Below are positions 2,925 through 48,835 of a stretch of DNA of 64,000 nucleotides, one piece after another. Below the pieces are notes generated by a model. That model searched no databases, was not told where the DNA came from, and saw only the letters and a list, made by a program, of their open reading frames with translations. The stretch is from the NCBI RefSeq assembly GCF_016132445.1, contig NZ_CP046056.1, forward strand, positions 1,116,001 to 1,180,000. Reading direction: 5' to 3'. Source of the DNA: Venatoribacter cucullus (GTDB lineage Bacteria > Pseudomonadota > Gammaproteobacteria > Pseudomonadales > Oceanobacteraceae). The first letter of the stretch is position 1. Each line of letters starts with the position of its first letter. The position numbers and the translations under genes were made by a program.

Positions 2925-3850
2925 GCCCGCCGGGCTGATACGGCCGCCGCTGCCGTGCTGGTTTAGCCGTCACTGCGTGACGGCTTTTTGCGGCTTGCAG
3001 CCGCTGGACAGGCCGCCGTTGGCGGCCTGATGCGGGGCTCCGCCCCTGCGCCCCAATGTAAGGGGATGAATCCCCTTACCAACCCCTCTGGCCCGCGTCC
3101 CAGCTGATCCTTGCTGAAAAAATCCGCTAACGCCCACGGATCGTAAGGTACATCCTGTACCACGATCCTTGCCCGGCATCCCGCCGGGCATGGCTACCGT
3201 CTTTTTTCATCGTCGGGCTGGCCCGAATGGGCCGGAAAAAACCGCAGCAAATTTAATATTTTCTAGCGGCCTGCGGCCGGAAGAATTTTCTTCTTTTGGC
3301 TTTTGGCTTTTGGCTTTTGGCTTTTGGCTTTTGGCTTTTGGCTTTTGGCTTTTGGCTTTTGGCTTTTGGCTTTTGGCTTTTGGTTTTTGGTTTTTGGTTT
3401 TTGGTTTTGCGCGCATAGCGCGCTCAATTAAACCCAGCCGGCGTAGCCGCTACTATTTTACGGCCCATTCGTTCCAGCCCGAAGTTTGGCAAAGCCAATA
3501 GCATCGTTTGGATGACTCCAAACGAGTGGCCAGGGGCATGGACAATTTTGTTGGAACAAAATTGAACAGCCGAAGGCTGGCCCGCAGGGCGAAAGGCAGG
3601 ATGCCTGAAGTCTCCCCCTTGGCCGCGTATGCTTAATTGGCTTTGGTAAACGAGGAACCAGCTGGAACGCGGGCCAGAGGGGTTCGCAAGGGGATACCTC
3701 CCCTTGCAATACCAGCGGCCGAAGGCCGCAAAAAGCCGTCACGCAGTGACGGCTAAACCAGCTGCCATGCAATGGCAGCCAACCAGCCCAACGGGCTGGC
3801 GTACACAATGCAAAGCCAGCGCGCAGCGCGGAAAAAGCAAGCCAGTCTGG
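2925..3850. repeat. Long hairpin-array element, copy A (core reversed)
   Basis: This about 0.9-kb non-coding stretch fills the gap between purE and the acyl-CoA synthetase gene. It is a chain of short hairpins, such as AGCCGTCAC-tgc-GTGACGGCT, GCGGCT-tgc-AGCCGC, GGGGC-tcc-GCCCC and GGATCGT...ACGATCC. Inverted arms at 3081-3110 and 3654-3684 bound the core. The outer left flank matches copy D, but the core (3111-3653) runs in the opposite direction to the cores of copies B and D. It contains a heptamer tract (3294-3405) and a palindrome CAATTTTGTT-gg-AACAAAATTG at 3543-3564 not seen in the other copies. ORFs here are by-products of the palindromes. Confidence 0.85.
3294..3405 (+). repeat. Heptanucleotide microsatellite inside element A
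   Basis: Sixteen uninterrupted 7-bp units: twelve TTTTGGC (3294-3377) then four TTTTGGT (3378-3405). The same place in copies B and D holds other short 7-bp-period tracts (AAAAGAA and GCAAAAA), so period 7 is kept while the unit sequence and copy number change. Confidence 0.95.
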
Positions 3851-3852
3851 CG

Positions 3853-5691
3853 CTACAGACTGATCTCCCCAGCATTGATGGCGGCTTCCACCTCCGCCGT
3901 CAGCGCTTCGTAAGCCGCCTGCTTACCCACCAAAACCAGCACCGGCTCGCTGACTTTATCCAGATGGTAAGCCTCGTTTTTCAGCTCCACCTTGCGGTAT
4001 TTGAAGGTGCCGGTCACTTCTTCCTGTTCGCGCAGGCGCAAAAACAGCGGAATGGCGTAGGCGGGTAATTTTTCGCGTAAATGGCGGGCCAGGGCACCCC
4101 AGTCCGGGCTGGCGCCGGGCTTCAGGGTAATGGCGGCCATGCCGGCGCGGCCATCGGTGTGGGGTATTTCCACGCCGTACACCACCGCGTGTTCGATATC
4201 GTCGAACTCCATCAGAATGGATTCCACTTCGGTGGTGGCGACGTTTTCACCTTTCCAGCGGAAGGTGTCCCCGAGGCGGTCGGCAAAGGCGACGTGCTTG
4301 AAGCCCTGGTTTAATACCAGATCCCCGGTGTTGAACCAGCAGTCGCCTTTTTTGAACACATTGCGGAATAATTTTTTCTGGCTGGCGTCTTCGTCGGTAT
4401 AACCATCGAAGGGCTGTTTGTCGTTCACTTCGGTAATCAGCAGGCCGGTGCCGCCTTTTTTAACCGGCACCATAAAGCCTTTTTTATTGCGCAGCGGTTC
4501 GTCGTTTTCAATATCGTAGGCGACGATGTTGTACGACAGCGGGCAGATACCGGCGGTTTTATCCAGATTTAAGGCGTTGGTAAATACCAGGTTGCATTCG
4601 CTGGCGCCGTAAAATTCGTTGATGTGTTTAATACCAAAACGCTGTTTGAATTCCATCCAGATATCTGGCCGTAAGCCGTTGCCGATCATTACGCGGATTT
4701 TATGCTGGCGGTCGTTGTCGCTGGCCGGGGTATTCAGTAAATAACGGCACAGTTCACCGATGTAGCAAAAAGCGGTGGCGCCGTGGTCACGGATTTCATC
4801 CCAGAATTTCGACACACTGAATTTACGCGAAATGGCAATGCAGGCGCCGGCGCCCAGCACCGCGGCCATGGAAACCGTTAAGGCGTTGTTATGGTACAGC
4901 GGCAGGCTGACGTACAGCACATCGTCTTTGCGCAGTTTCATGGACGCCAGGCCCATACCGGCCATGGATTTAAACCAGCGGTAATGGGTCATTACTGAGG
5001 CTTTTGGCATGCCGGTGGTGCCGGAGGTAAAAATATAATAACAGGGCTGGTGCATCTGCACGGCCGCGGTGGTGCCGGGGTTGCTGTCGGGTTGTGGCGC
5101 GCAGGCAGCGTGCAGATCCTGATAATGCGCCGGACAGTCGCGCTGGCCGGTGTCTTTCACATAATAGAGTTGCGCTTTTAATGCGCGCGGCAGAGCGTGT
5201 TCGACGGTGGCCAGGTTATTCAGCATTTCTTCACCGATCAGCAACGCTTTCGGCTGAATCAGGTTGATGCTGTGTTCCAGCACTTCACCGCGCTGCGAGG
5301 TATTGATCATACCGGCAATGGCGCCCAGTTTTACAATGGCCATTACGGAAATCAGGCTTTCCGGGCGGTTTTCCAGCATTACCCCAACACTATCTCCGGC
5401 ACCGATGCCCTGGCTGATTAATAAATGGGCAATGCGGTTGGCGGCTTCGTTCAGCTGCTGATACGACCAGGTAATATTCTGGTAGCGGATGGCAATATGG
5501 TCGGGCTGACTGGCGGCGTGTTTTTCCAGTAATAAACCAATGGATTTTTTCTTTTCCGGTTTGGTGGTCACCAGTGCCGCCACGCCTTTTAAGGTTACGC
5601 CCAGTTCGGGCAGGCCCTGTACGACACTGCCGAGAATATTCACCAGGCTGACATGACGGGGTTGTAACGGTGCCGGAGAGGTGGTGGTCAT
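3853..5691 (-). CDS. Long/very-long-chain acyl-CoA synthetase, FATP-like
   Basis: ANL-superfamily ligase that forms acyl-CoA from fatty acid, ATP and CoA. I chose the ATG at 5691 (612 residues) over a TTG two codons upstream because AAGG sits 9-10 bp before it. The AMP-binding P-loop TSGTTGMPKA is at about residues 222-231. The motif 'YIGELCRYLL' is typical of the FATP/SLC27-like branch, and 'FNTGDL' and 'FRWKGENVATTEVE' are the hinge and C-terminal domain signatures. It heads a minus-strand fatty-acid block downstream of two acyl-CoA dehydrogenase genes. Its stop codon lies within a few bases of repeat element A, which may serve as its terminator. Confidence 0.9.
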   Translation of the reverse strand: MTTTSPAPLQPRHVSLVNILGSVVQGLPELGVTLKGVAALVTTKPEKKKSIGLLLEKHAASQPDHIAIRYQNITWSYQQLNEAANRIAHLLISQGIGAGDSVGVMLENRPESLISVMAIVKLGAIAGMINTSQRGEVLEHSINLIQPKALLIGEEMLNNLATVEHALPRALKAQLYYVKDTGQRDCPAHYQDLHAACAPQPDSNPGTTAAVQMHQPCYYIFTSGTTGMPKASVMTHYRWFKSMAGMGLASMKLRKDDVLYVSLPLYHNNALTVSMAAVLGAGACIAISRKFSVSKFWDEIRDHGATAFCYIGELCRYLLNTPASDNDRQHKIRVMIGNGLRPDIWMEFKQRFGIKHINEFYGASECNLVFTNALNLDKTAGICPLSYNIVAYDIENDEPLRNKKGFMVPVKKGGTGLLITEVNDKQPFDGYTDEDASQKKLFRNVFKKGDCWFNTGDLVLNQGFKHVAFADRLGDTFRWKGENVATTEVESILMEFDDIEHAVVYGVEIPHTDGRAGMAAITLKPGASPDWGALARHLREKLPAYAIPLFLRLREQEEVTGTFKYRKVELKNEAYHLDKVSEPVLVLVGKQAAYEALTAEVEAAINAGEISL

Positions 5692-5723
5692 AAGCAATTT
5701 ACCTTAATTTTTTATTGTTGGTT

Positions 5724-6932
5724 TCAGCGTAATTCAGCCGAGCTTTTACCCAGTAAACGGCGGGCAATAATCAGCTGCTGAATTTGTTGGGTGCCTTCAA
5801 AGATATCCAGAATTTTTGAGTCGCGTGCCCATTTTTCCAGTAATTCGTCTTCACTGTAGCCCAGCGCCCCCAGCAGCTCGACACAGCCCAGGGTAATGGC
5901 GTTGGCCGTGCGGCCGGCTTTGGCTTTGGCCATGGAGGCTTCTTTGGAGTTGGGCATGCCGTTGTCGGCCATCCAGGCGGCTTTTAAGGTCAGCAGGCGG
6001 GCGGCTTCCCAGTCGGCCTCAAAGCGGTACAGCTGGGCTTCCAGATGGCTGGTATTTTTCAGGTCATGACGGTACTGCGGTTGCAGGCCGTATTCCTTCA
6101 GAATGGCCCAGCTGCGGTCGAGGGCGGCTTTGGCGACGCCCACCGCCATGGCAGCGACCACCGGGCGGGTGTTGTCGAAGGTTTGCATTACGCCGGCGAA
6201 CCCCTGTTCGGGGTTAATGTCGGGGCTGCCGAGCAGGTTGGTGGCAGGGACGCGGCAATCGGTAAAGGTAATGGCAGCGGTGTCGGAGGCTTTGATACCG
6301 AGTTTCTTTTCCAGCCGCACCACGTCCATGCCGGGGGTGCCTTTTTCCACCACAAAGGATTTGATGGCGGCGCGGCCGATACTGCGGTCGAGGCTGGCCC
6401 AGACCACCACTGCCTCGGCGCGCTCACCGGAGGTGACGTAAATTTTTTCGCCGTTCAGAACGTAATGGTCGCCGTCTTTAACGGCGGTGGTGCGGATGGC
6501 GGCGGAATCGGAACCGCAGCCCGGTTCAGTAATGGCCATGGCCGCCCATTTTTTACCAAAACGGGCGAATTGTTCGGCATCGGCCACGGCGGCAATGGCG
6601 GCGTTGCCCAGACCCTGACGGGGCAGGGTAAGGGATAAACCGACATCGCCCCAGCACAGTTCCTGCAGCCCCAGCACGGTCGACATATTGGTGCTGTTGA
6701 CGATGCCATCGGCGTGCTTTTTATCCTGTTTTAATTTACCGGCGCCGGCGCCTTCTCCCATGGTGCCGTCGTTCATGCCATCCATTATGGCGGCCAGTAT
6801 ATCCAGCTCGACCGGGTAGGCGTGTTCGTTACGGTCGTATTTACGCGAAATAGGGCGGAATACGTTGTTGGCCACCTGCCGCGCCTGCTGCACCAGCGGG
6901 CGGAATTTTTTCGGAACTTCCAGATTCAGCAT
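5724..6932 (-). CDS. Acyl-CoA dehydrogenase with intact catalytic Glu
   Basis: The product is 402 residues, starting MLNLEVPKKFRPLV at 6932 with AAGGAG 8 bp upstream. The frame continues upstream but overlaps the preceding gene. It is an FAD enzyme that makes trans-2-enoyl-CoA. Visible signatures are 'AMAITEPGCGSDSAAIRTTA' (flavin/substrate loop) and the C-terminal 'LDIFEGTQQIQQLIIAR', whose Glu at about 379 is the expected catalytic base. It lies 11 bp after the second dehydrogenase gene on the same strand, which suggests co-translation and perhaps a heteromeric enzyme. Chain-length preference cannot be told. Confidence 0.9.
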   Translation of the reverse strand: MLNLEVPKKFRPLVQQARQVANNVFRPISRKYDRNEHAYPVELDILAAIMDGMNDGTMGEGAGAGKLKQDKKHADGIVNSTNMSTVLGLQELCWGDVGLSLTLPRQGLGNAAIAAVADAEQFARFGKKWAAMAITEPGCGSDSAAIRTTAVKDGDHYVLNGEKIYVTSGERAEAVVVWASLDRSIGRAAIKSFVVEKGTPGMDVVRLEKKLGIKASDTAAITFTDCRVPATNLLGSPDINPEQGFAGVMQTFDNTRPVVAAMAVGVAKAALDRSWAILKEYGLQPQYRHDLKNTSHLEAQLYRFEADWEAARLLTLKAAWMADNGMPNSKEASMAKAKAGRTANAITLGCVELLGALGYSEDELLEKWARDSKILDIFEGTQQIQQLIIARRLLGKSSAELR

Positions 6933-6943
6933 GAGTGTTCTCC

Positions 6944-8269
6944 TTACAGGTGCAAACCACTGTTGATGCAACCCAGCACGCGCAAATCGCGGTACCAGCG
7001 TTCGGCCGGATGTTCTTTGGTGAAACCGTGGCCACCCAGTAACTGCACGGCGTTGGTGCCGATTTCCATGGCTTTGTCGGCGCACAGAATATGCGCCAGA
7101 TACGCTTCGCGGTGGAACGCTTTGCCCTGTTCGGCCAGTGCCGCCGCGCGCCAGGTGAGCAGGCGCATGGATTCCAGTTCGATGGCCATATTGGCCAGCA
7201 TAAAGGCCACTGACTGCCGGTGGCTGATGGGTTCGCCAAAGGCTTCGCGTTCATTGCAGTAGGGAATCAGGTAATCCAGCGCGGCCTGGCAGGTGCCGGT
7301 GGCCAGCGCACACCAGTGCAGCTGACCCAGATCGAGAAAATCACGGTAGTGAAAATCGCTGTGCTCGCCGCCGAGCAGGGCGTTGTGGTCAAGTTTGACG
7401 TTGTCCAGAGTCAGGGTGCCGGTTGCTGCTGCACGCAGGCCCATGGCCGGTTGCGCTGCAAAGCTCAGGCCGGCGGTGTCGGCCGGTACAATAAACAGCC
7501 GTGGCTTGCCGTGGTAATGCGCCGCCACCAGATACAGCTGCGCCTTGCCGCCCAGCGGCACCAGGGTTTTTTCACCGTTCAGGGTAAAGCCTTTGCGCTG
7601 ACTGGTAGCACTGCAGCGGAGTTTGTCGGCACTGAACAGCGGGTGTTGTTCCTGCACCGCAATGGCGGCCTGCACCGGTTGTTCGCCCAGCCATAACGGC
7701 AGCCAGCGTTGCTGCTGTTGCTGGGTGCCCCAGCGTACCAGCGCATTGGCCACCGCCACCGGGGCGAGGGTGGCAAACGCCAGGGATAAATCGCCCCAGG
7801 CCAGTTCTTCGGCAATGATGGCGCTGGTGGTCGGACTGTAACCACTGGCGGCACCGCCCATGGATTCGGGCACGGCAAACAGATTCAGCCCCAGTGCCAT
7901 GGCGTCCTGCAGATAAGTGTCGGGCAGGGCACAGGCTTCGTTGGCGTCGTGAGCCAGCCCGCGCACGATATCGCTGGCGTAGGCGCGCACGCTGTCTTTA
8001 ATCATCTGCTGTTCGTCGGTAAGGCTTAAATCAAACAGCTGTTTTTCGCGGCTGTTGGGCAGCCGTTCGCCGGGGGTGGGATCGGGTTGCTGGCGCTTTT
8101 GCAGCAATTTACCGGCGAAGCGGAAACCGGCGCGGGTGGATAAATAGGCGATGCGCTCAACCGGTTTGCGCAGACCGTATTTTTCTGCCCAGCGGCTGCC
8201 GGCGAAGCGGCTGGCCAGCCGTAAGCCGACGCCCTGAATGTCCTGTGCCATCAATACTGCCTCAGTCAT
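6944..8269 (-). CDS. Acyl-CoA dehydrogenase-like partner lacking the usual C-terminal Glu motif
   Basis: A 441-residue acyl-CoA dehydrogenase-fold protein with an extra N-terminal segment of about 75 residues before the first dehydrogenase helix ('FDLSLTDEQQMIKDSVRAYA'). The C-terminus has 'LLGGHGFTKEHPAERWYRDL' but then ends RVLGCINSGLHL, without the EGT motif that carries the catalytic Glu in the neighbouring gene. Together with the 11-bp spacing this resembles heteromeric dehydrogenase pairs in which one subunit supplies the base. It may instead use a Glu elsewhere, or be structural. The start at 8269 (MTEAVLMAQD) could also be the Met seven codons later. Confidence 0.8.
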   Translation of the reverse strand: MTEAVLMAQDIQGVGLRLASRFAGSRWAEKYGLRKPVERIAYLSTRAGFRFAGKLLQKRQQPDPTPGERLPNSREKQLFDLSLTDEQQMIKDSVRAYASDIVRGLAHDANEACALPDTYLQDAMALGLNLFAVPESMGGAASGYSPTTSAIIAEELAWGDLSLAFATLAPVAVANALVRWGTQQQQQRWLPLWLGEQPVQAAIAVQEQHPLFSADKLRCSATSQRKGFTLNGEKTLVPLGGKAQLYLVAAHYHGKPRLFIVPADTAGLSFAAQPAMGLRAAATGTLTLDNVKLDHNALLGGEHSDFHYRDFLDLGQLHWCALATGTCQAALDYLIPYCNEREAFGEPISHRQSVAFMLANMAIELESMRLLTWRAAALAEQGKAFHREAYLAHILCADKAMEIGTNAVQLLGGHGFTKEHPAERWYRDLRVLGCINSGLHL

Positions 8270-8347
8270 TATTCTTATGCGCCGAGGTTGTCGGATTCAG
8301 AACTCAATAGCATTGGCAGCAGTGGCCAAGGCCGGTGGGCGGTTCGG

Positions 8348-9046
8348 TCAGTCGGCTACGCGCAGGCATTGCTGCAGACTGTGCCGGCAAGCCTGTAACA
8401 CCGCCCGGCCAATGTGTTCACCGGCGCGGGTATGTTTGCCGCAGAACGCCAGCGCCGGAGTGTCAGCGCTGGCCGGTGGGCAGATCACGGCGTGGCTGTC
8501 GGTGCCGGTGCCGCTGGCGGGCAGGCCGGATACCGGGCTGAGTAAATTCAGATCACGGATGGCGGTGACCTTGGCTTCGGTCAGCTGAATTAAGGCTTCG
8601 GTCATGGCCGCCGGGGTTAACGGCTGGTGCAGCAGCAGCCAGATATTAATAGTACCCGCCCGCGGCGGTGCATCGGCCCGGTCGCCGGGGCGGCGCAGAT
8701 TGGCCAGCCCGGCGGTAACCCAACATTCGGCGGTAAAATGCGTATCACCGCTGCGGGCATAACCCAGTGATTGCATGGAGGCGGCGGTCATCATACCGCA
8801 GCAGGGTGCGCTTAAATGCAGTTGCTGTGCCTGTTGCTGCAGCGTTTGGGCGGCCGGTGGCCAGGGTGGCGGGGCATTGGCATCGACGCGCAGATTCAGC
8901 AAACTGCGCGCGCTACTGAAACCGCCATTGAGTACGGCCGAGCTGAGAATTGGCCAGCGTTCAGGCAGATGCAGGACGATGTAATCAGGCTGATGCAAAA
9001 ACTCTATGGCGTGGCAGTTGGGCGCCGGACGGTCTGTCGTTATCAT
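8348..9046 (-). CDS. cbiZ: Adenosylcobinamide amidohydrolase
   Basis: The 232-residue protein carries the CbiZ-family pattern '[20 protein letters not shown]' split over residues of about 31-50, '[15 protein letters not shown]' in the middle and a glycine/threonine loop '[13 protein letters not shown]'. CbiZ cleaves the side chain of adenosylcobinamide or pseudocobalamin to adenosylcobyric acid, allowing salvage and remodelling of foreign corrinoids. No other cobalamin gene is in the window, so it stands alone here. It is divergent from yaaA (37 bp between start codons) and lies 78 bp before the acyl-CoA dehydrogenase block. No lipobox or signal peptide is visible. Confidence 0.8.
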
Positions 9047-9082
9047 AGGGGCTGTTTACCACGTCCCGTTACAGGAAACACC

Positions 9083-10442: not shown

Positions 10443-11260
10443 CCGGCAGCCTGCCGGGCTGGGTTTTCAGCCTTGCCGGCTGTCAGCCCTGTCGGGCTGG
10501 TTTAGCCGTCACTGCGTGACGGCTTTTTGCGGGCTGCGCCCGCTGGACAGGCTGCCATTGCATGGCAGCTTATGCGGGGCTCCGCCCCTGCGCCCCAGTG
10601 CAAGGGGAGGTATCCCCTTGCCAACCCCTCTGGCCCGCGTCCCAGCTGATCCTCGTTTACCAAAGCCAATTGAGCATACGCGGCCAAGGGGCATCCATGC
10701 CCCTGGCCACTCGTTTGGAGTCATCCAAACGATGCTATTGGCTTTGCCAAACTTCGGGCTGGAACGAATGGGCCGAAAAAACAGTAGCGGCTACGCCGGC
10801 TGGGTTTAATTGAGCGCGCTACGCGCGCACAGCCCAAAAGAAAAAAGAAAAATTCTTCCGGCCGAAGGCCGCAGAAAACTATTCGGGTTGCTGCGGTTTT
10901 TCCCGGCCCAATCGGGCCAGCCCGCCGCTGAAAAAAGCCGGTAGCCATGCCCGGCGGGATGCCGGGCAAGGATCGTGGTACAGGATGTACCTTACGATCC
11001 GTGGGCGTTAGCGGATTTTTTCAGCAAGGATCAGCTGGAACGCGGGCCAGAGGGGTTGGTAAGGGGATTCCTCCCCTTACATTGGGGCGCGGGGGCGGAG
11101 CCCCGCAATAGGCCAGTCGCGGCAGCGGCGGCCGTATCAGCCCATCGGGCTGACAGCCTGCAAGGCTGAAAACAGCCAGCGCGCAGCGCTGGTGTCACGG
11201 GCATGGCCCGTTCCCACAGAAGCCAACCAGCCCGGCAGGGCTGGCATACCGCATAACCAG
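10443..11260. repeat. Long hairpin-array element, copy B
   Basis: This non-coding element fills the gap between two convergent genes. In order it shows CCGGCAG-c-CTGCCGG (10443-10457), AGCCGTCAC-tgc-GTGACGGCT (10504-10524), GCGGGC...GCCCGC (10529-10543), GCTGCCAT-tgc-ATGGCAGC (10551-10569), GGGGC-tcc-GCCCC and AAGGGGA...TCCCCTT, then inverted arm 10623-10652. The core follows, including GGATCGT...ACGATCC at 10970-11000, then the opposite arm at 11028-11057, which differs from the first by one base, and a mirror-image set of hairpins. Core order and direction match copy D and are opposite to copy A. It begins directly at the lipoprotein stop codon. Confidence 0.88.
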
Positions 11261-11263
11261 CGC

Positions 11264-22662: not shown

Positions 22663-23455
22663 GATGTACGCCAGCCCTGCTGGGCTGGCTGATTCCAGCC
22701 TTGCAGGCTGTCAGCCCTATCGGGCTGATTGGCTGCCACTGCGTGGCAGCTTGTGCGGGGCTCCGCCCCCGCGCCCCGATTGCGAGGAACTTATCCTCGC
22801 GCTCCAGCTTTGCGCTGTATAGCACGTATTTCCTCATTCACCGTCATTGCCTGCGGCCACGGATCGTAAGGCGCGTCGTGCGCCACGATCCTCGCCCGGT
22901 CCATCCGGGCGGGCCTGTCAATGACGGTTCATTTCGGCGTGCTATAGGCGCGATTCAAACCCCAGCGGCTACGCCGGCAAAATTTAAGTGGGCGCGCTAC
23001 GCGCGCAAAAAACGAAACCCAAAAATATCCGGCCGCAGGCCGCCAAAATTCTTTCACATTGCTGCGGTTATTCCCGGCCCATTCGTTCCAGCCCGCTGAT
23101 GAAAAAAGCCGGTAGCCATGCCCGGCGGGATGCCGGGCAAGGATCGTGGTACAGGATGTACCTTACGATCCGTGGGCGTCAGCGGATTTTTTCAGCAAGG
23201 CAACGACCAGCGGGAGTAACAGCCGCAGGCTGGCCCGAAGGGCGAGCGAAGCGAGTAACAGCTGGGACGCGGGCCAGAGGGGTTCGCAAGGGGATACCTC
23301 CCCTTGCAATACCAGCGGCCGAAGGCCGCATAAGCTGCCGCGTAGCGGCAGCTTAAACAGCGGCTGTAAGCCGCAAAAGCCGTCACGCAGTGACGGCTAA
23401 ACCAGCCCAACGGGCTGGCGTACAGCGTGGTCAGCCGGGCAGGCAGTAAAGGGCC
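22663..23455. repeat. Long hairpin-array element, copy C (mosaic)
   Basis: The element lies between convergent TauE-like and dbpA genes. Hairpins include CCAGCCC...GGGCTGG, CAGCCT-tgc-AGGCTG, GCTGCCAC-tgc-GTGGCAGC and GCGAGGA...TCCTCGC. The left half of the core is replaced: instead of the module seen in B and D there is a second, reversed GGATCGT hairpin (22861-22891) whose inner stem is GGCGC/GCGCC. The right copy (23141-23171) has GGTACA/TGTACC. The outer right end carries AGCCGTCAC-tgc-GTGACGGCT in reverse. No 7-bp tract is obvious. It adjoins the dbpA stop codon. Confidence 0.85.
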
Positions 23456-39357: not shown

Positions 39358-39372
39358 TCTGAGGTTACGGCT

Positions 39373-40179: not shown

Positions 40180-40267
40180 TCTTTTCACCGCCACGACGGC
40201 TTCTATATTCTTGTTTGGTTATATTGGCTATAGTGCTGAACAACGAAACGGAACAATGGAGCAGCGT

Positions 40268-41392: not shown

Positions 41393-41432
41393 ACATGGGG
41401 TAGAAATAAAAACGCTGTTTAAAAAATAAACG

Positions 41433-41460
41433 TTGACAGGCTGGGGAATGGGTATAGACT
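41433..41460 (+). promoter_or_regulatory. Promoter of the cold-shock gene
   Basis: TTGACA, a 16-bp spacer and TAGACT. It lies about 170 bp before the start codon, leaving a long 5' leader as in cspA-type genes. Confidence 0.65.
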
Positions 41461-41630
41461 GCCCCCAGCTTGTTAGTTCGACCTTTTATTTATGTTCATC
41501 TCCAGATGTCCTGCCAGTGGCTTAAGCCGTAAGCGTTTCATCCTGTTTTGTTTTCCATAAGTATTCAGACCGTCTTCCAGCATACCGGCCGTATGGCCAC
41601 TACTTTTGAAAAAATACAGGAATACTGATT

Positions 41631-41840
41631 ATGTCTAATCAAATCACCGGCACCGTAAAATGGTTCAACGAAGCAAAAGGTTTTGGTTTTATTGAGCGTG
41701 AAGGCGGCCCGGATGTGTTTGCACATTTCAAAGCCATCACCGGTACTGGTTTCAAAACTCTGACTGAAGGTCAGCGTGTAACCTTTACTGTTACTCAAGG
41801 CCAGAAAGGCCCGCAAGCTGAGAACATCGTTCCGGCTTAA
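41631..41840 (+). CDS. CspA-family cold-shock protein
   Basis: A 69-residue single cold-shock domain. RNP1 is KGFGFIE and RNP2 is VFAHF, with Ala where Val is usual. '[14 protein letters not shown]' is the standard start. It binds single-stranded RNA and DNA. The long leader (about 160-170 nt from the proposed promoter) and its own terminator fit temperature- or growth-dependent control at the RNA level. Codon use is strongly biased, suggesting high expression. Confidence 0.96.
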
Positions 41841-41880
41841 TCTTTCTGCCGCTGCACCTTGGTGCAGCTTCAGAACGAAG

Positions 41881-41910
41881 AAAAAGCGAACCGACGGGTT
41901 CGCTTTTTTT
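41881..41910 (+). terminator. Intrinsic terminator of the cold-shock gene
   Basis: AAGCGAACC-gacg-GGTTCGCTT with A's before and seven T's after. Confidence 0.92.
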
Positions 41911-41980
41911 ATGCCTGTCGTTCCGCCGGGGCAGCCATTCAGAAAGCCCGAAAGTAATACCATGACAGTACCGGGGCGGA

Positions 41981-42841
41981 TTAATCGTCCGCCTCTTCCT
42001 GTTCCAGCAGCCGTTGCCGGCGCGCTTCTTCTTCAGCCAGTACGGCGCGTATTTCCTCCATCACACTGCCGACGTCGGCTTCGTGTTCGTCGGCCTCATG
42101 CTCACCGGTTAAGACGCTGTCGGCGGTTAATTCGCCGGCTTCATAGAGTGCCCACATTTCACCGGCATAGTCGGTCTGCAATAAATCCGGTGCGAACAGA
42201 CCGTAGTATTCGGTCATATTACGCACGTCACGTTGCAGCATGCTTTTGGCGTGCATATTGGCAGCGGCATCCACCGCCTGCGGCAGGTCGATAATGACCG
42301 GGCCGTAATCGTCTACCAGCACGTTAAATTCGGATAAATCGCCGTGTACCAACCCTTCAACCAGCATCAGTTTGACGTATTCCATCACCTCGGCGTGGTC
42401 TTCCCGGGCTTGTTCAGCGGTCATGCTGACATCGTTCAGGCGCGGCGCAGCACGGCCCTGGTCATCGGTTATTAATTCCATCAGCAGTACGCCATCAAAG
42501 CAGCCGTAAGGCTGTGGCACCCGCACACCAGCGGCGGCCAGCCGGTACAGGGCTTCCACCTCGGCGTTATGCCAGGCGTCTTCCTGTTGTTTGCGGCCGA
42601 ATTTTGAGCCTTTTTCCATCGCCCGCTGGCGCCGGCTGTTGCGGACTTTACGCCCCTCCTGATATTGCACGGCCTGTTTAAAACTGCGTTTATCGGCTTC
42701 TTTATAAATTTTGGCGGCGCGGATCTCATTACCGCAGCGCACCACAAATACCGCGGCTTCTTTGCCGCTCATCAGCGGGTGCAGCACTTCATCGATCAGA
42801 CCATCGTCCACCAACGGCTGCAGACGTTTCGGAATTTTCAT
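41981..42841 (-). CDS. RIO1-type serine kinase
   Basis: A 286-residue RIO-fold protein kinase. The flexible ATP loop is in 'LMSGKEAAVFVVRCGNEIRA' with Lys in 'AAKIYKE'. The catalytic loop is 'VHGDLSEFNVLVDD' and the metal-binding Asp is in 'VIIDLPQAVD'. The C-terminus is very acidic (HEADEHEADVG, ending EEADD). Bacterial RIO1 homologues occur in pseudomonads and relatives with unknown targets. It follows the saccharopine-dehydrogenase-like gene by 4 bp and is surely co-transcribed with it. Confidence 0.9.
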   Translation of the reverse strand: MKIPKRLQPLVDDGLIDEVLHPLMSGKEAAVFVVRCGNEIRAAKIYKEADKRSFKQAVQYQEGRKVRNSRRQRAMEKGSKFGRKQQEDAWHNAEVEALYRLAAAGVRVPQPYGCFDGVLLMELITDDQGRAAPRLNDVSMTAEQAREDHAEVMEYVKLMLVEGLVHGDLSEFNVLVDDYGPVIIDLPQAVDAAANMHAKSMLQRDVRNMTEYYGLFAPDLLQTDYAGEMWALYEAGELTADSVLTGEHEADEHEADVGSVMEEIRAVLAEEEARRQRLLEQEEADD

Positions 42842-42845
42842 GCGT

Positions 42846-44117
42846 TCAGCTCAGTACCTCAAAAGTCAGGCCGGCATTGGCTTGCAGGCGGGTCAGGTAG
42901 CCTTCGCCCAGCGCTGAGGCCGGAGTCCAGAAACCACCTTCGCGGCCGGTTTTGTTGCCTTGCGGATCGTGCAGATCACAGGCCAGCGAAACAATGGCTT
43001 CGCCCAGCATTTTGGCGGTTGAGCCATAGCCCGGGTCTTTATCACCCTTTACCCGGGTAATCAGGGTTTCACGTTTGCTGGTGCGGCCAACAAAGCGCAG
43101 ATCAAAAAAGCCCTGTTCCTGCGCCTGCGGGCTGGGGCCTTCGCCGGGTTTCGGCAGCAGGAATTTTTCCAGCAGCCAGCGGGTGGGCGGCAGTGCCGCG
43201 GCCAGCAGAAACAGGCTGATACCGCCGGTCATTACGGCTGCCCCCAGCCAGCCTTTAAAACCACGCCCGGTTAGTACCGCTTCATTGTAGGAAAAATCTT
43301 TGCCCCAGCTGCTGCCCAGTAAGGCGTTGGAGCGGTGCACAATGCGGGTGTTAATGGCAGCCATGATAAAGGGCGCGGTGTAGCTGAGCAGATCGGTGTC
43401 TTTACCAATGCCGCTCATTGGATTCTGGCGCCGGCTAAAGCCATGCTGGGGCGGGCACAGAGAGTAGGGATTGGCCAGTTCTTTGCGCAGCGCGGGGTTG
43501 GCCATCACTTCTTTGGTCAGTTGCAGCATGCTGGCGTAGGTGCCGCCCGACAAGCCGCCTTTACCGGCTTTAAAGCGCATCTGTACCTGGCTGGCCGGAG
43601 CGCCGAAACGCTGGCTGCATTGCTGTTGCAGAAACAGCACGCCAAGGTCAGAGGGCACGGAATCAAAGCCGCAGCAATGCACAATACGCGCGCCTGAGGT
43701 TTTTGCCGCGGCTTCGTAGCGGTTCAGCATCAGCCGTATCCACTGTGGCTCGCCGGTTAAATCGCAGTAATCGGTACCGCTTTCCGCACACACTTTAACC
43801 AGGGTTTCGCCGTACAGCGCGTAAGGGCCAACGGTGGAGACTACGGCGCGGGTTTGCGCGCACAGCGCCTGCAGTTGTTCTTCGTTGCCGGCATCGGCCA
43901 GCAGCACGGGCAGTGCAGCAGTTTTATCACCCAGCACGGGTTGCAGCGCGTCTTTTACCTGCTGCAGTTTGGCCTGTGAACGACCGGCAATGGCCCAGCG
44001 TAAATCACCATCAACACCATAGGTGGTGGCCAGATAACGGACCAGAATCTGACCAACAAAACTGGTGGCGCCGAACACAATCAGGTGGTAGCCGGAAGGG
44101 GAGCTGGGGTGGTTCAT
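42846..44117 (-). CDS. Saccharopine-dehydrogenase-like oxidoreductase
   Basis: A 423-residue protein with an N-terminal Rossmann domain: 'YHLIVFGATSFVGQILVRYL' and 'ARAVVSTVGPYALYGETLVK'. 'YCDLTGEPQW' and 'HCCGFDSVPSDLGVLFLQQQ' are typical of the SCCPDH-like group, which includes trans-acting enoyl reductases, rather than true lysine-pathway saccharopine dehydrogenases. A hydrophobic segment near residues 290-310 ('GAAVMTGGISLFLLAAALPP') suggests membrane association. The substrate is unknown and lipid-related by family. Operon with the RIO kinase. Confidence 0.82.
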   Translation of the reverse strand: MNHPSSPSGYHLIVFGATSFVGQILVRYLATTYGVDGDLRWAIAGRSQAKLQQVKDALQPVLGDKTAALPVLLADAGNEEQLQALCAQTRAVVSTVGPYALYGETLVKVCAESGTDYCDLTGEPQWIRLMLNRYEAAAKTSGARIVHCCGFDSVPSDLGVLFLQQQCSQRFGAPASQVQMRFKAGKGGLSGGTYASMLQLTKEVMANPALRKELANPYSLCPPQHGFSRRQNPMSGIGKDTDLLSYTAPFIMAAINTRIVHRSNALLGSSWGKDFSYNEAVLTGRGFKGWLGAAVMTGGISLFLLAAALPPTRWLLEKFLLPKPGEGPSPQAQEQGFFDLRFVGRTSKRETLITRVKGDKDPGYGSTAKMLGEAIVSLACDLHDPQGNKTGREGGFWTPASALGEGYLTRLQANAGLTFEVLS

Positions 44118-44274
44118 GAATCGACCTGTTTACTTATGCTTATGATGCGCTGACGTTACCCGTTATTGCCCCTGAATGTAAGGGTCTGATCGCTTGCGGA
44201 CGTAGCGAATGGGGCAGCCGGCGTGTATTGTAAGTCTTTTTCGGGTTTATTTTCTGTGGCTGCGAGGTGATGGG

Positions 44275-45018
44275 TTGGACACACAGATCGGGTGGCTGAA
44301 TTGGTTCAGTCTGGGCTGGTTTTTATTCTGCTGGGTCAGTTATTCATTATTTGCCCGGCGCATGGCGAAAAAGAGTGCTTGTCTGGCGTCGGTGATGCAC
44401 GTACACCGTATTAACTGGATGCGCCGGTTATTACAGCGGGAAATGCGGGTAGGCGATGCGGCATTGCTGGCCAATATTGAACGTAATGTGAATTTTTTTG
44501 CCTCCTCCTGTGTGCTGATTCTGGCGGCTTTGGTCACGGCATTAACGGCGGTGGCTCAGCTTGAGGGGGTGCTCAGCAGCATTTCCTTTGCGATCAGCTC
44601 CAGTGTGCTGGAGCTGGAACTGAAGGTGATGACCCTGATCGTTATTTTTATTTATGCGTTTTTCACCTTTACCTGGTCGATGCGCCAGTTCGGCTTTGCC
44701 TCGGTGCTGGTGGGTGCTGCGCCCATTCCTGGCGATACCACGGTGACGGCAGCAGAACGGCGCAGCTTTGCGATTTATGCAGCCAAAGTGATTGATCAGG
44801 CCAGCCACAGTTATAACTTTGGCTTGCGCGCCTATTACTTTTCGCTGGCGGTGCTCAGTTGGTTTTTGCACCCGTTGTTGTTTATTGTTACATCGGCGCT
44901 GGTGGTGCTGGTACTGTACCGGCGCGAATTTCACTCTACGGTACTGGATGCTATGAAAAAAGTGGAAAATGTTGGCACTAAATTATTCGTAACCGATAAA
45001 GAATTATCCCGTTTTTAA
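44275..45018 (+). CDS. DUF599 membrane protein
   Basis: The 247-residue product starts at a TTG at 44275 preceded by GAGG. The open frame begins at an ATG 66 bp earlier, without a ribosome site. Four hydrophobic helices ('WLNWFSLGWFLFCWVSYSLF', 'NFFASSCVLILAALVTAL', 'MTLIVIFIYAFFTFTWSMRQ', 'FSLAVLSWFLHPLLFIVT') and the 'SYNFGLRAYYFSLA' motif match DUF599, an uncharacterised family. The FKBP gene follows 10 bp later. Confidence 0.78.
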   Translation: MDTQIGWLNWFSLGWFLFCWVSYSLFARRMAKKSACLASVMHVHRINWMRRLLQREMRVGDAALLANIERNVNFFASSCVLILAALVTALTAVAQLEGVLSSISFAISSSVLELELKVMTLIVIFIYAFFTFTWSMRQFGFASVLVGAAPIPGDTTVTAAERRSFAIYAAKVIDQASHSYNFGLRAYYFSLAVLSWFLHPLLFIVTSALVVLVLYRREFHSTVLDAMKKVENVGTKLFVTDKELSRF

Positions 45019-45027
45019 GGAAGCACC

Positions 45028-45504
45028 ATGACCAATCTTATTTTCTGGCTATTAGTCGCTGCGCTGGTTATTTATGCACTGTACCGGGCTGGTGTCGGCA
45101 GCAATAAAATCGCCGCCAGGCAGCGCAGCAAAGCGGCTGAATTTCTGGCCACTAACGGCCAGCGCGAGGGCGTAGTTACCACCGCATCGGGCTTGCAGTA
45201 CGAAGTGCTGCAACCGGGCCAGGGGGAGGTGCATCCGAAGGCTACCGATACGGTGCTGGTGCATTACCACGGCACGTTAATGAGTGGCGAGGTATTCGAC
45301 AGCTCGGTTGAGCGTAAAGAGCCTATCCGCTTTGCTCTGAACCAGGTGATTCCGGGCTGGACCGAAGGCCTGCAAACCATGGTGGAAGGGCAGAAAACCC
45401 GGCTGTTTATTCCGCCGGAGCTGGCTTACGGCAATCAGCGTGCCGGCAGTATTCCGCCCGGCTCGCTGCTGATTTTTGACGTGGAATTATTGCAGATCGA
45501 CTGA
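45028..45504 (+). CDS. Membrane-anchored FKBP-type prolyl isomerase
   Basis: The 158-residue product has one N-terminal transmembrane helix (MTNLIFWLLVAALVIYALYR). A short basic linker and an FKBP domain follow: 'GLQYEVLQPGQG', 'VLVHYHGTLMSGEVFDSS', 'VIPGWTEGLQTMVEGQKTRL' and 'IPPELAYGNQRAGSIPPGSL'. The aromatic pocket residues look intact, so prolyl isomerase activity is likely. Orientation of the anchor cannot be told from sequence alone. It shares a transcript with the DUF599 gene. Confidence 0.9.
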   Translation: MTNLIFWLLVAALVIYALYRAGVGSNKIAARQRSKAAEFLATNGQREGVVTTASGLQYEVLQPGQGEVHPKATDTVLVHYHGTLMSGEVFDSSVERKEPIRFALNQVIPGWTEGLQTMVEGQKTRLFIPPELAYGNQRAGSIPPGSLLIFDVELLQID

Positions 45505-45526
45505 TCGGTAATCGCCGTGGCCCCGT

Positions 45527-46072
45527 TTATTCGGGGCGCTGCCGCACCTGCAGGTTCAGTTCCACACTGCTGTCGCTGTTACCCAGCCACAGGCTGCCAT
45601 CCTGAATGCTGGCCTGCAGGCGCATGGTGCGGTCGCACAAAGCATTCAGCTGACTGATGGCGGTGGCATCAAATTCCAGCACGCTCAGGTTGCGGAAACG
45701 CCGGCAGGTGCTTTCCATTTGCTCCCACCAGATTTGCGCCGAGCGGCCGTGGTACAGGTAAATAATCACCTGTTTCGAGCGGTTGCAGGCTTTGCGGATG
45801 CGTTTTTCATCCGGCTGCCCCAGTTCAATCCACAGCTCAATTTCATCACTTAACGAATGCGTCCATAAATCCGGCTCATCGTCGGTGCTGATGCCCCGGG
45901 TAAATTCCAGTTGCTCGCTGGCATTGAAGGCAAAAGCCGCCAGCCGCACCATCATCCGTTCGGTGGTTTCCGACGGATGCTGGGCGATGGTGAGCGGGTA
46001 AGTGTGGTAATGGTGACGGTCCATATCGGAAACCGTCAGCTCTGCTTTGTAAACCGTGGCTTTCAGTGCCAT
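45527..46072 (-). CDS. yaeQ: YaeQ family protein
   Basis: A 181-residue protein, the same length as E. coli YaeQ. The start is the ATG at 46072 (MALKATVYKAELTVSDMDRH); the frame opens earlier within trhO. Family blocks: 'HHYHTYPLTIAQHPSETTER', 'DLWTHSLSDEIELWIELGQP', 'KRIRKACNRSKQVIIYLYHG'. The fold is a PD-(D/E)XK nuclease variant and the role is uncertain. It lies 10 bp after trhO on the same strand. Confidence 0.92.
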   Translation of the reverse strand: MALKATVYKAELTVSDMDRHHYHTYPLTIAQHPSETTERMMVRLAAFAFNASEQLEFTRGISTDDEPDLWTHSLSDEIELWIELGQPDEKRIRKACNRSKQVIIYLYHGRSAQIWWEQMESTCRRFRNLSVLEFDATAISQLNALCDRTMRLQASIQDGSLWLGNSDSSVELNLQVRQRPE

Positions 46073-46082
46073 TGCCGATTCC

Positions 46083-47084
46083 TTATGCGTCTTTTTGCTG
46101 GCGCTGCTTATTTTTAAACGCCAGTTTTTCCTGCCGGCGTTGCTCAATAATGCTGCTCAGGTCGTTGCCCAAATGCTGCTCGCCGCGTTCTCGCGCCAGT
46201 TGCATCTGGCGTTCGCGCTGACGGAAACGCTCGCGCTGTTCTTCGTCGTATTCATCAAAGCAATGGTGGCAGCTGACGCCCGGCACATAATGTTCGTGCG
46301 CTTTGTCGGCTTCGGTAATGGGCCGGCGGCAGGCGTGACACTGGTCATAATCGCCTTTCTGCAGCTGGTGATTCACCGTCACGCGGTTATCGAACACAAA
46401 GCATTCGCCTTCCCACAGGGATTCCTGCTGCGGAACCTCTTCCAGATACTTCAGAATGCCGCCTTCCAGGTGGTAAACCTCGTCAAAGCCCTGTTCTTTT
46501 AAATAAGCGGTGGATTTTTCACAGCGGATACCACCGGTGCAGAACATCGCTACTTTTTTATGTTTGGCCGGGTCGAGGTTTTCTTTTACATACTGCGGAA
46601 ATTCGCGGAAGGTTTTGGTGCGCGGATCGAGCGCGCCCTTAAAGGTACCGATGTCCACTTCGTAATCGTTGCGGGTATCCACCAGCACCACCTCGGGGTC
46701 GGAAATCAGCGCGTTCCAGTCCTGCGGTTTGACGTAAGTACCCACCACCCGTTTGGGGTCGATGCCTTCTACGCCCATGGTGACGATTTCTTTTTTCAGC
46801 TTCACCTTGGTGCGGTAAAACGGCATCTCATCGTCGTAGGATTCTTTCCAGCTGATATCGGCCAGACGCTCATCCTGACGCAGCCAGTTCAGCAGCGCAT
46901 CAATGCCTTCACGGCTGCCGGCAACGGTGCCGTTAATGCCTTCCACAGCCAGCAGCAATGTGCCTTTAACATCGAGTTTCAGCATTTCGTCCAGCAGCGG
47001 CTGGCGCAGTTGTTCAAAGTTGTCGAGGGTGGCGAATTTATACAGCGCGCACACCACGACCGGAGTCGGTTGGGTATTGCTCAT
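46083..47084 (-). CDS. trhO: tRNA uridine(34) hydroxylase, rhodanese-type
   Basis: The 333-residue TrhO/YceA protein takes part in forming 5-hydroxyuridine at tRNA position 34. An N-terminal acylphosphatase-like domain ('[20 protein letters not shown]') precedes a rhodanese domain with '[20 protein letters not shown]' and the catalytic cysteine in '[15 protein letters not shown]'. A C-terminal cysteine-rich part follows ('CHACRRPI', '[10 protein letters not shown]'). The last 50 residues are a charged helix. GAGGA lies 4 bp before the ATG. Confidence 0.93.
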
Positions 47085-47287
47085 ACAGTCCTCAGCTGGC
47101 CGGAACGTAAATCCGGTGCGTTATGGCGTTAAATCAGGCCGCCGGTCGCGGCGGGCGCGGATTATAGCGAATTAATCCGACCGTCGCAGTCGGAATAGGG
47201 CAGCTGTCTGAATTGCCCGGTCTGCAGGTTGGACAAACCGGGTGAGGCTTTTAGCGTAGCGCTTCAGTGTTTTTACCGGGAGGCGTT

Positions 47288-48007
47288 ATGCGCTGTTGGC
47301 TGGCCGTGGTGTTGGGGTGCTGGATATTGCATGGATGGTCGAACACCGTCAGCCTGACCTATTCCGGCGCCAGTCTGGTGGATGTGTGGCTGCAGCTGCC
47401 TGACGGCCGGATTTTACGCGCCACCCAACCCTATGCCGAAGACCTGCCGCTGTGGCTGGAATACCAGCCCGGCAGCACCCGTTTGCATATTGATGGGCCG
47501 TTACCAGCGGGTAACTACCGGCTGGGCGTGTCGCGCTGGTTTGCCGTGCAGCCACTGGACTACCGGCTGCAGCTGCCTGCCGGGGCCATTGTGGATGGGT
47601 TGCTGGATAACGATGCACAGGTAGTCGACTGGCTGGCCGAACTGTCCGCTGACGAATTATGGCCAGCAGCGCAGCCCGCACCGGATTATCAGCAGCGTGC
47701 GCAGTTGCGTGGCGATTGGGAGGTGATGACCGCTGCCGGTACCCTGCGGCTACAGCTGGATGCAGAGCAGTTACGGCTGTGGTGGCAGCCGGTGCATGAG
47801 CAGGACTGCATGGCGTATGAATTTAAACCCGGGCCGGGGTTGCCGGGTGGGCTGCGCTGGCGGGATGGTTTGCGGTTGCATCGGGGGTTGTTATTGGAAG
47901 TGGCGGAGGCGGAGGTTATTGCCAGCCTGCCGGAGTGGCTGCTGTTGCAGCCGGTTTCTAACGGCCTGCAGGCGCTTGGCTGTTGTGGGAACGGGCCATG
48001 CCCGTGA
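47288..48007 (+). CDS. Unrecognised exported protein whose 3' end lies in repeat element D
   Basis: A 239-residue protein starting MRCWLAVVLGCWILHGWSNT at 47288 with GGGAGG just upstream; an in-frame GTG 21 bp earlier is less likely. The N-terminus is a plausible signal peptide. The rest is rich in Trp, Leu and short beta-like segments ('TVSLTYSGASLVDVWLQLPD', 'GDWEVMTAAGTLRLQLDAEQ'). I recognise no family. From codon 231 (47978) the gene runs inside the 49-bp terminal repeat of element D, which encodes GCCGNGPCP and the stop. The original C-terminus may therefore have been replaced. Confidence 0.7.
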   Translation: MRCWLAVVLGCWILHGWSNTVSLTYSGASLVDVWLQLPDGRILRATQPYAEDLPLWLEYQPGSTRLHIDGPLPAGNYRLGVSRWFAVQPLDYRLQLPAGAIVDGLLDNDAQVVDWLAELSADELWPAAQPAPDYQQRAQLRGDWEVMTAAGTLRLQLDAEQLRLWWQPVHEQDCMAYEFKPGPGLPGGLRWRDGLRLHRGLLLEVAEAEVIASLPEWLLLQPVSNGLQALGCCGNGPCP

Positions 48008-48835
48008 CACCAGCGCTGCGCGCTGGCTGTTTCCAGCCTTGCAGGCTGTACGCCAGCCCGTTGGGCTGGTTTAGCCGTCACTGCGTGACGGCTTATGCGG
48101 CCTGCGGCCGCTGGACAGGCCGCCGTTGGCGGCCTGATGCGGGGCTCCGCCCCTGCGCCCCAGTGCAAGGGGAGGTATCCCCTTGCGAACCCCTCTGGCC
48201 CGCGTTCCAGCTTTATCCTCGTTTACCAAACCCAATTGAGCATACGCGGCCAAGGGGCATCCATGCCCCTGGCCACTCGTTTGGAGTCATCCAAACGATG
48301 CTATTGGCTTTGCCAAACTTCGGGCTGGAACGAATGGGCCGGAACAACCCTGGCGGCTACGCCGGCGTGGTCTTATTGGGCGCCCTGCGCGCGCAAAATT
48401 GAAAGCAAAAAGCAAAAAGCAAAAAGCAAAAATAAAAAAATAAAAAATTCTTCCGGCCTCAGGCCGCCAAAAGCGATTCAGGTTGCTGCGGTTTTCCCGG
48501 CCCATTCGGGCCAGCCCGCAGGTAAAAAAAGCCGGTAGCCATGCCCGGATGACTCCGGGTAAGGATCGTGGCACAGGACGTGCCTTACGATCCGTGGGCG
48601 TAAGCGGATTTTTTTAGCCAGGATCAGCTGGAACGCGGGCCAAGGGGTTCGCAAGGGGATTTTCCCCTTGCATCCGGGGCGCGGGGGCGGAGCCCCGCAT
48701 AAGCTGCCATGCAATGGCAGCCAATCAGCCCTATAGGGCTGACAGCCTGCAAGGCCAGCGCGCAGCGCTGGTGTCACGGGCATGGCCCGTTCCCACAACA
48801 GCCAACCAGCCCGGCAGGGCTGGCGTGCAGCATTT
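47978..48835. repeat. Long hairpin-array element, copy D, with perfect terminal inverted repeats
   Basis: The element is bounded by a perfect 49-bp inverted repeat, 47978-48026 and 48755-48803, each containing CGGGCCATGCCCG and CCAGCGC-tgc-GCGCTGG-type hairpins. Inside are AGCCGTCAC-tgc-GTGACGGCT, GCGGCC-tgc-GGCCGC, AGGCCGCC-gtt-GGCGGCCT, arms at 48188-48218 and 48621-48649, and the GGATCGT hairpin with inner stem GGCAC/GTGCC. Core direction equals copy B. It separates the convergent unknown gene and rsxE and replaces the place where nth often follows rsxE. Confidence 0.9.
48405..48432 (+). repeat. Heptamer tract inside element D
   Basis: Four GCAAAAA units, then A-rich degenerate units with interspersed T. 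It corresponds in position (reverse orientation) to the TTTTGGC tract of copy A. Confidence 0.85.

What the first reader, a model, noticed from the sequence alone, without database searches (positions are those of the whole stretch)
2925..48835. Family of four long hairpin-array elements with covarying stems
Elements A (2925-3850), B (10443-11260), C (22663-23455) and D (47978-48835) share a fixed order of short hairpins. Corresponding stems differ by paired changes. The hairpin inside GGATCGT...ACGATCC has inner stem GGTACA/TGTACC in A, B and C-right, GGCAC/GTGCC in D, and GGCGC/GCGCC in C-left. The next-to-first stem is GCGGGC/GCCCGC (B), GCGGCC/GGCCGC (D), GCGGCT/AGCCGC (A). The arm stem is GTAAGGGGA/TCCCCTTAC, GCAAGGGGA/TCCCCTTGC or GCGAGGA/TCCTCGC. 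Such compensation points to selection on the fold, as RNA or as DNA cruciform. I know of no described family with this layout; it could be a large structured RNA, a terminator array or a mobile repeat.
Basis: partly seen in the sequence, partly recalled or inferred. Interest (0 to 1): 0.82.

Follow-up and report, generated by a model that had tools for sequence, protein, structure and literature searches.

The report
Paired back-to-back RNA hairpin repeats
This bacterium carries about 28 scattered copies of an intergenic repeat, most of them two different RNA-like hairpin domains set back to back, and the domains are relatives of a known RNA motif of unknown function, so a poorly understood RNA turns out to belong to a multi-copy genomic repeat.

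Summary
In detail: the four elements exist and their stems change by paired substitutions. What is conserved is a ~200-nt half-element. The genome has at least 28 element places with 49 halves of three sequence types; 20 places hold two halves back to back, always of two different types (permutation P about 0.0003). Read outward from the centre, each half is a stem capped by two hairpins, related to the Rfam TwoAYGGAY RNA (RF01731): a model made from other genomes finds 15 of 20 beta and 6 of 15 alpha halves; widened once, it finds 19 beta, 10 alpha and 3 of 14 gamma, all on the predicted strand. Rfam's own model stays below its cut-off here but passes it in 12 of 55 genomes searched. Neighbouring hits elsewhere also point apart (17 divergent, 0 convergent, 9 same-way). 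G·T outnumber A·C mismatches on the outward strand, favouring selection on RNA. At the four matching sites in a congener I saw no element, so these copies are dispersed, not shared. I read them as a REPIN-like mobile repeat carrying RNA domains; CsrA binding is plausible but weakly supported.

The parts
2925..3850 (.). Element A (alpha half on -, beta half on +), with a (TTTTGGC)n-like microsatellite in its centre
3031..3233 (-). A, alpha half read outward: stem, two capping hairpins, H2, H1; cap 3128-3194
   Evidence: R1 23.9 bits, E 1.4e-5; R2 38.1 bits, E 2.5e-7
3462..3714 (+). A, beta half read outward; second capping hairpin split by a nested hairpin insert (about 3543-3614)
   Evidence: R2 over 3501-3636, 27.8 bits, E 9.8e-5; insert recurs in G002, G004, G005, G006, G007
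10443..11260 (.). Element B (beta half on -, alpha half on +) between convergent genes
10573..10774 (-). B, beta half; TwoAYGGAY-like cap 10670-10739
   Evidence: R1 36 bits, E 2e-9; R2 55.5 bits
10905..11107 (+). B, alpha half; TwoAYGGAY-like cap 10944-11010
   Evidence: R1 23.9 bits, E 1.4e-5; R2 38.1 bits; Rfam RF01731 35.2 bits, below cut-off 43 (not listed)
10775..10904 (.). B, centre between the two halves (no promoter-like match)
22663..23455 (.). Element C (gamma half on -, alpha half on +) between convergent genes
22754..22953 (-). C, gamma half read outward (first capping loop ATGGAC, second loop ACGAC without GGA)
   Evidence: not found by R1 or R2
23076..23314 (+). C, alpha half; cap 23115-23181; a second kind of nested insert at about 23200-23259
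   Evidence: R1 22.8 bits, E 3.2e-5; R2 36.6 bits; RF01731 36 bits over 23113-23181, below cut-off
47978..48835 (.). Element D (beta half on -, alpha half on +) next to an Rnf/Nqr subunit gene
48138..48340 (-). D, beta half; cap 48236-48305
   Evidence: R1 36 bits, E 2e-9; R2 55.5 bits
48499..48699 (+). D, alpha half, diverged subtype (loops ATGACT and AGGAC)
   Evidence: not found by R1 or R2

Best explanation
The elements are copies of a dispersed, non-autonomous repeat whose unit is a ~200-nt half-element. Read outward from the centre, a half is a long stem capped by two small hairpins, a derived form of the TwoAYGGAY RNA, followed by one or two further hairpins (H2, H1) and an array of short hairpins. 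A full element is two such halves of different type, back to back, so that whichever strand is transcribed carries one domain in its RNA sense. Shown: anatomy, number, the back-to-back and two-type rule, kinship of beta and most alpha caps with TwoAYGGAY, covariation, and no element seen at the same four sites in a congener. Supported but not proved: selection acts on the outward strand as RNA. Inferred: the copies spread like REPINs and settle mainly at gene 3' ends; two identical halves are not kept because they would make a long, unstable palindrome; two GGA-bearing loops bind a dimer of the CsrA/Rsm protein, so that read-through transcripts carry a CsrA-binding 3' element. The CsrA step is the weakest (about 0.3).
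For: Genome count and halves. Two-type rule: 20 of 20 pairs in G000, P 0.0003; 9 of 9 typed pairs in G003 with three other types, P 0.044; 4 of 4 pairs in G212/G322/G416 by eye. Kinship: RF01731 hits of 33-40 bits in G000 elements and relatives' loci; over the cut-off in 12 of 55 genomes (own included) and in 15 of 369 genomes of the class, 0 of 14 controls. Model R1, without any G000 sequence, hits 15 of 20 beta (14 at E 6e-10 to 7e-8, one at 0.001) and 6 of 15 alpha caps (E 1e-5 to 0.0014), on the outward strand. Model R2 (51 caps, 6 of them G000 beta, no alpha or gamma) hits 19 of 20 beta, 10 of 15 alpha, 3 of 14 gamma; its 32 matches with E up to 0.013 all lie on halves, outward strand. 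Covariation. RNA strand: on pairs common to the folds of both strands 16 G·T types against 3 A·C (P 0.004); in the arms of 19 G018 copies 50 against 19 (P 0.0002). Pairs elsewhere: 17 divergent, 0 convergent, 9 same-way. Dispersal. CsrA: gene present once; TwoAYGGAY was proposed as CsrA-binding (PMC4333381, passages); CsrA bridges two sites (PMC7652899, passages).
Against: No G000 match reaches the Rfam cut-off (best 39.8 of 43); the B alpha hit is not listed. R2 misses 5 of 15 alpha, 11 of 14 gamma and 1 of 20 beta halves. R1 also scores hairpins outside the domains: 19.2, 17.3 and 16.3 bits in L050, L032, L048 and 22.7 and 16.9 in the window, as high as some alpha caps, so R1 alone does not settle alpha. 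GGA in both loops is kept only in part of the alpha halves; gamma loop 2 is mostly ACGAY and beta loop 1 TGAY. ANGGA is not enriched on the outward strand in beta (28 against 25.0 shuffled) or gamma (16 against 17.0), only in alpha (29 against 15.5). No promoter-like site in B or D, the two scanned. No Y1 transposase in the genome, so the agent of spread is unknown. Copies are related, so cells in the mismatch counts are not independent. In G010 the copies stand the same way round (6 of 6 neighbouring pairs), and so do the halves in L037 of this genome.
Confidence: 0.55

Rival explanations
1. Ordinary REPIN/BIME-like DNA repeats: palindromes kept by their DNA behaviour (copying by a transposase, cruciforms, gyrase or nucleoid protein sites), with no RNA function; the likeness to TwoAYGGAY is convergence of hairpins with similar loops.
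For: Multi-copy, intergenic, mosaic, at convergent or tandem gene ends with none between divergent genes in 28 automatic calls; nested hairpin inserts; a different hairpin repeat occupies the site of D in relatives; R1 also scores some outer hairpins.
Against: No Y1/RAYT transposase in this genome; R2 matches fall on the predicted strand of the halves; G·T exceeds A·C; conserved two-hairpin caps with covariation across genomes.
Confidence: 0.2
2. Two-way 3'-end elements: terminators and mRNA-end stabilisers for convergent genes, with the GGA loops irrelevant.
For: Gene context 15 convergent, 13 tandem, 0 divergent of 28; strong hairpins; by eye some outer hairpins end in TTTTT when read inward.
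Against: Terminator scan of B and D hardly above shuffles; does not explain the conserved two-hairpin cap or the two-type rule; G003 does without them at the same sites.
Confidence: 0.15
3. Recombination scars: elements mark where genes were lost from this small genome, by recombination between half-elements, which also makes the mixed pairs.
For: Between the flanks in G003 and G008 lie one large open frame at A (in G003 a 787-aa hybrid histidine kinase), three open frames at C, and about 84 kb at B; the genome is 2.83 Mb against about 4.1 Mb in G003.
Against: D lies at no gene loss; four other places in the window are shorter than in G003 and one is rearranged, without an element; no elements seen at the matching sites in G003; at A, G005 has a 166-bp gap, neither gene nor element.
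Confidence: 0.1

Closest known systems
TwoAYGGAY RNA (Rfam RF01731, clan CL00106)
   Same: Stem with two capping hairpins, GGA-bearing loops in many copies; several congeners pass the Rfam cut-off.
   Different: Below the cut-off in this genome; loops partly changed; here joined to H2/H1 and hairpin arrays, in pairs of unlike halves back to back, at 28 or more places in one genome.
CsrB/CsrC/RsmX/RsmY/RsmZ decoy RNAs
   Same: Hairpins with GGA loops; the alpha cap contains CAGGATG, near the SELEX consensus RUACARGGAUGU but one R shorter.
   Different: Not one or two dedicated genes with promoters (recalled), but many intergenic repeats with two capping hairpins each; function untested.
REPINs / BIMEs (recalled; abstract starts seen)
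   Same: Dispersed, intergenic, inverted pair of hairpin units, many copies, at gene ends.
   Different: Units about 200 nt with an RNA-like domain; paired units always unlike; no RAYT (Y1_Tnp) found.

Membership tests
TwoAYGGAY RNA (RF01731) | Score at or above Rfam's gathering cut-off (43 bits) | tested here: not met
   0 in G000; best 39.8 bits; met in 12 of 55 genomes searched
TwoAYGGAY RNA (RF01731) | Two hairpins side by side on a common stem | tested here: met
   consensus folds of alpha, beta, gamma
TwoAYGGAY RNA (RF01731) | AYGGAY in both terminal loops | tested here: not met
   beta: loop 2 only; gamma: loop 1 only, mostly; alpha: variable
TwoAYGGAY RNA (RF01731) | Homology through intermediate genomes | tested here: met
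   R1: 15 of 20 beta, 6 of 15 alpha, 0 of 14 gamma; R2: 19, 10 and 3
CsrA-sequestering RNA | Binds CsrA/RsmA | not testable with these tools
   only csrA presence shown
CsrA-sequestering RNA | Excess of ANGGA motifs on the RNA strand | tested here: inconclusive
   alpha yes, beta and gamma no
REPIN | Dispersed inverted pair of palindromic units | tested here: met
   20 two-half elements
REPIN | RAYT (Y1_Tnp) transposase in the genome | tested here: not met
   PF01797: 0 matches

The most novel reading that the evidence does not exclude
TwoAYGGAY is not a cis-regulatory leader but the RNA part of an unrecognised class of mobile repeat, found across gammaproteobacteria, built of two unlike RNA domains back to back. 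It spreads to gene 3' ends by an unknown route that in some genera leaves long, site-specific inverted arms (G018), and the population of copies buffers the Csr/Rsm system of the host.
Probability: 0.2. Interest if true: 0.85.

Novelty: new variant of a known kind. Interest (0 to 1): 0.62.

Why it matters
TwoAYGGAY was listed as a probable RNA without known role in 2010 (PMC2864571, table line seen). Finding it as many dispersed copies, often as pairs pointing apart, changes what it can be: a repeat with an RNA domain rather than a regulator of one gene. The rule that the two halves differ is a clean, testable statement, and the small set of types per genome makes direct binding and deletion tests feasible.

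Tried and rejected
Rejected: one large RNA over the whole element (the halves have their RNA sense on opposite strands and fold alone). Rejected: RAYT-driven REPIN in the strict sense. Considered: the arms of G018 copies are inverted duplications of the target made on insertion. At the one site tested (L110, between frames that I take for eno and ftsB, recalled) the relative G013 lacks cap and both arms, so this neither shows nor excludes it. Considered: GGA enrichment as proof of CsrA binding; it failed for beta and gamma. The G·T/A·C test was first done on a fold that favours G·T (24 G·T against 3 A·C types) and on the other strand's fold, which favours A·C (20 A·C against 17 G·T types); I use only the pairs common to both. 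The genome-contig scan for names found 21 stretches, none of which I recognise as a relative, the own genome being possibly left out. The organism is therefore inferred: size 2,827,114 fits Venatorbacter cucullus ASxL5, 2.82 Mb (PMC8560859, passages), not proved. Rfam with relaxed thresholds was run on the window and on 12 of the 23 G000 loci and on L048 and L052, not on the rest. Rows dropped: two wrong-strand duplicates of 51 extracted halves; L135 of 19 G018 cores from A1; in A2 two alpha halves, C and L033, were given as shorter references.

Full report
What is there. The window holds four intergenic elements (A 2925-3850, B 10443-11260, C 22663-23455, D 47978-48835). The whole genome (2,827,114 bases, one contig) holds at least 28 places. 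I took 23 stretches around the hits and cut out the repeating unit: 49 halves, 15 of type alpha, 20 beta, 14 gamma, after two wrong-strand duplicates of 51 were dropped. Twenty places hold two halves in inverted order; nine halves stand otherwise, among them three in L037, all the same way round.

Anatomy of a half, read outward from the element's centre: a closing stem, a longer stem, two capping hairpins, then hairpin H2, in most halves hairpin H1, and one or more short hairpins. Alpha and gamma share the second hairpin (GGATCGT..ACGATCC) but have unrelated stems. H2 and parts of the caps change by paired substitutions: alpha 11, beta 4, gamma 4 pairs with more than one Watson-Crick type. 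Five beta halves (A, L034, L046, L047, L051) have a nested hairpin insert in the second cap; matches to it of 64-96 bases occur in five other genomes of the genus at 84-90% identity.

Two-type rule. All 20 two-half elements join different types (10 beta-gamma, 6 alpha-beta, 4 alpha-gamma); random pairing of the same 40 halves gives this with P about 0.0003. In G003, same genus, three quite different types occur; 9 of 9 pairs whose types I could assign by BLAST, out of 15 loci looked at, are mixed (P 0.044). In four pairs of G212, G322 and G416 all four are mixed by eye. The simplest reason is that two equal halves would be a long, nearly perfect palindrome, which cells tend to lose (recalled); but a need for two different domains is not excluded.

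Kinship. A scan of all Rfam families gave nothing over the cut-offs. With relaxed thresholds one family came back several times: TwoAYGGAY, RF01731, at 35-40 bits in G000 elements (B alpha, C alpha, L039 and L041 beta) and 33-38 bits in two relatives' loci. In 55 genomes (own, 8 of the genus, the rest of family and order) the same model is over its cut-off in 12 and has matches at E up to 0.1 in 25, up to 41 in one genome; 14 control genomes gave none. In the class 15 of 369 genomes are over the cut-off. I aligned 26 caps, 18 of 19 from G018 and 8 from G003; 12 of 15 pairs have changes on both sides, and all five measures exceed all 500 shuffles. A model of these (R1, no G000 sequence) searched against the window and 23 loci found 15 of 20 beta halves (14 at E 6e-10 to 7e-8, one at 0.001), 6 of 15 alpha halves (E 1e-5 to 0.0014) and 0 of 14 gamma halves, on the outward strand. 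It also gave 16-19 bits to three hairpin stretches outside the halves and, over the window with filters off, 22.7 and 16.9 bits to two more, so alpha scores of R1 (19-26 bits) are not decisive alone. I therefore widened the model once: R1 over 50 loci gave 51 matches at E up to 1e-6, six of them beta caps of G000, none alpha or gamma; 13 of 15 pairs have changes on both sides and the covariation score is 0.624 against 0.135 in shuffles, on an alignment fitted to the structure. This model R2 finds 19 of 20 beta, 10 of 15 alpha (E 1.5e-7 to 0.0012) and 3 of 14 gamma halves (E 0.0017 to 0.013); all 32 lie on halves on the outward strand, and the first match elsewhere has E 0.062. Two defining features of the Rfam family are not met, so I call the elements relatives of TwoAYGGAY and do not file them as members.

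Back-to-back order elsewhere. Among listed RF01731 hits with a neighbour within 650 bases, 17 pairs point apart, none towards each other, 9 the same way, six of these in G010 (rows copied, whose lists are cut). The family was listed in 2010 as a probable RNA of human gut, gammaproteobacteria and Clostridiales (PMC2864571, one table line). In the passages I saw of the four papers naming it that I opened there is no mention of pairs or many copies; seven papers hold the name, three I did not open, and supplements were not open to me.

RNA or DNA. If the RNA of one strand is selected, its stems tolerate G·U, seen as G·T on that strand, but not A·C. On pairs present in the folds of both strands there are 16 G·T and 3 A·C types (18 and 3 cells; P 0.004 and 0.0015). 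In G018 the arms give 50 against 19 (P 0.0002). Copies are related, so these values are indicative. Both favour the outward strand. A strand bias of mutation could mimic this.

Sites in relatives. D: in G002, G003 and G008 an open frame of 270-274 codons (in G003 29% identical to the left neighbour of D over 212 aa, E 1e-17) and the rnf genes flank another hairpin repeat. A: G003 and G008 have an open frame of 787-788 codons between the flanks, in G003 a hybrid histidine kinase; in G001, G002 and G006 the gap is 2.7-3.0 kb, in G004 1.5 kb, in G005 166 bases. C: three open frames in G003 and G008, the first an EAL/GGDEF protein in G003. B: the flanks lie about 84 kb apart in both. In the intergenic stretches that I printed I saw no element; for G008 at B and C I have only the absence of a BLAST match to the window. 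Compared with G003, four other places in the window are shorter in G000 (about 44.1, 45.1, 45.5 and 55 kb) and one is rearranged (46.1 kb), without an element. So the elements are not shared at these sites and do not mark every gene loss; three of four at places where G003 has genes is suggestive only.

Gene context. 15 convergent, 13 tandem, 0 divergent of 28, by automatic calls of open frames of 100 codons; by eye some calls are wrong where a frame lies inside an element (L031, L033, L043).

Function. One csrA match is present. PMC4333381 proposed that TwoAYGGAY binds CsrA (passages), and a CsrA dimer can bridge two sites 10-63 nt apart (PMC7652899, passages), which suits two caps. The alpha cap GGTACAGGATGTACC resembles the SELEX consensus RUACARGGAUGU but is one nucleotide short. 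Against this, many caps in this genome have lost GGA, and ANGGA is in excess only in alpha. In G018 all 18 aligned copies keep GGA in both loops, so a Csr role may be alive there and decaying here.

Verdict. A real and unusual repeat, related to a known orphan RNA; kinship of the caps about 0.85, RNA-level selection about 0.65, CsrA about 0.3 (my estimates).

Noticed in passing
L109-L113, L130-L143 (G018): 19 TwoAYGGAY-type copies (of 22 loci looked at) have conserved two-hairpin caps on stems of 20-30 bp and more whose sequence differs at every site (outer parts 26% identical on average, near chance) while staying paired (432 Watson-Crick columns of 530).
   Followed up: partly
window 41464-41911 (+): Match to the cspA thermoregulator RNA, 60.7 bits, below the cut-off of 78, E 7e-13.
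   Followed up: no
window 3543-3614 and 23200-23259: Two kinds of small hairpin inserts nested inside the elements; the first recurs in five congeners.
   Followed up: partly
L148-L150, between the left flank gene and the rnf genes: A different hairpin repeat (CACGCTCTGCGTGG..CCACGCAGAGCGTAGG) occupies the site of D in G002, G003 and G008.
   Followed up: no
gamma halves; L236, L238: Hairpin H2 after the domain has a YAAG-like loop in gamma halves and in copies from G017 and G010 (GGATAAGTTCC, GGACAAGGTCC, GGTAAGACC), so it may be a conserved 3' part missing from the Rfam model (by eye).
   Followed up: no
L237, L238 (G010): Copies in G010 stand the same way round, separated in L238 by a microsatellite.
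   Followed up: no
window 3293-3406; L047, L049, L050: Short tandem repeats such as (TTTTGGC)n, (GGGTTTT)n, (CCAAAAA)n in element centres, of very different length between copies.
   Followed up: no
L228-L231 (G212, G322, G416): Outer short palindromes, some with TGC loops, flank the pairs in a distant family too (by eye).
   Followed up: no
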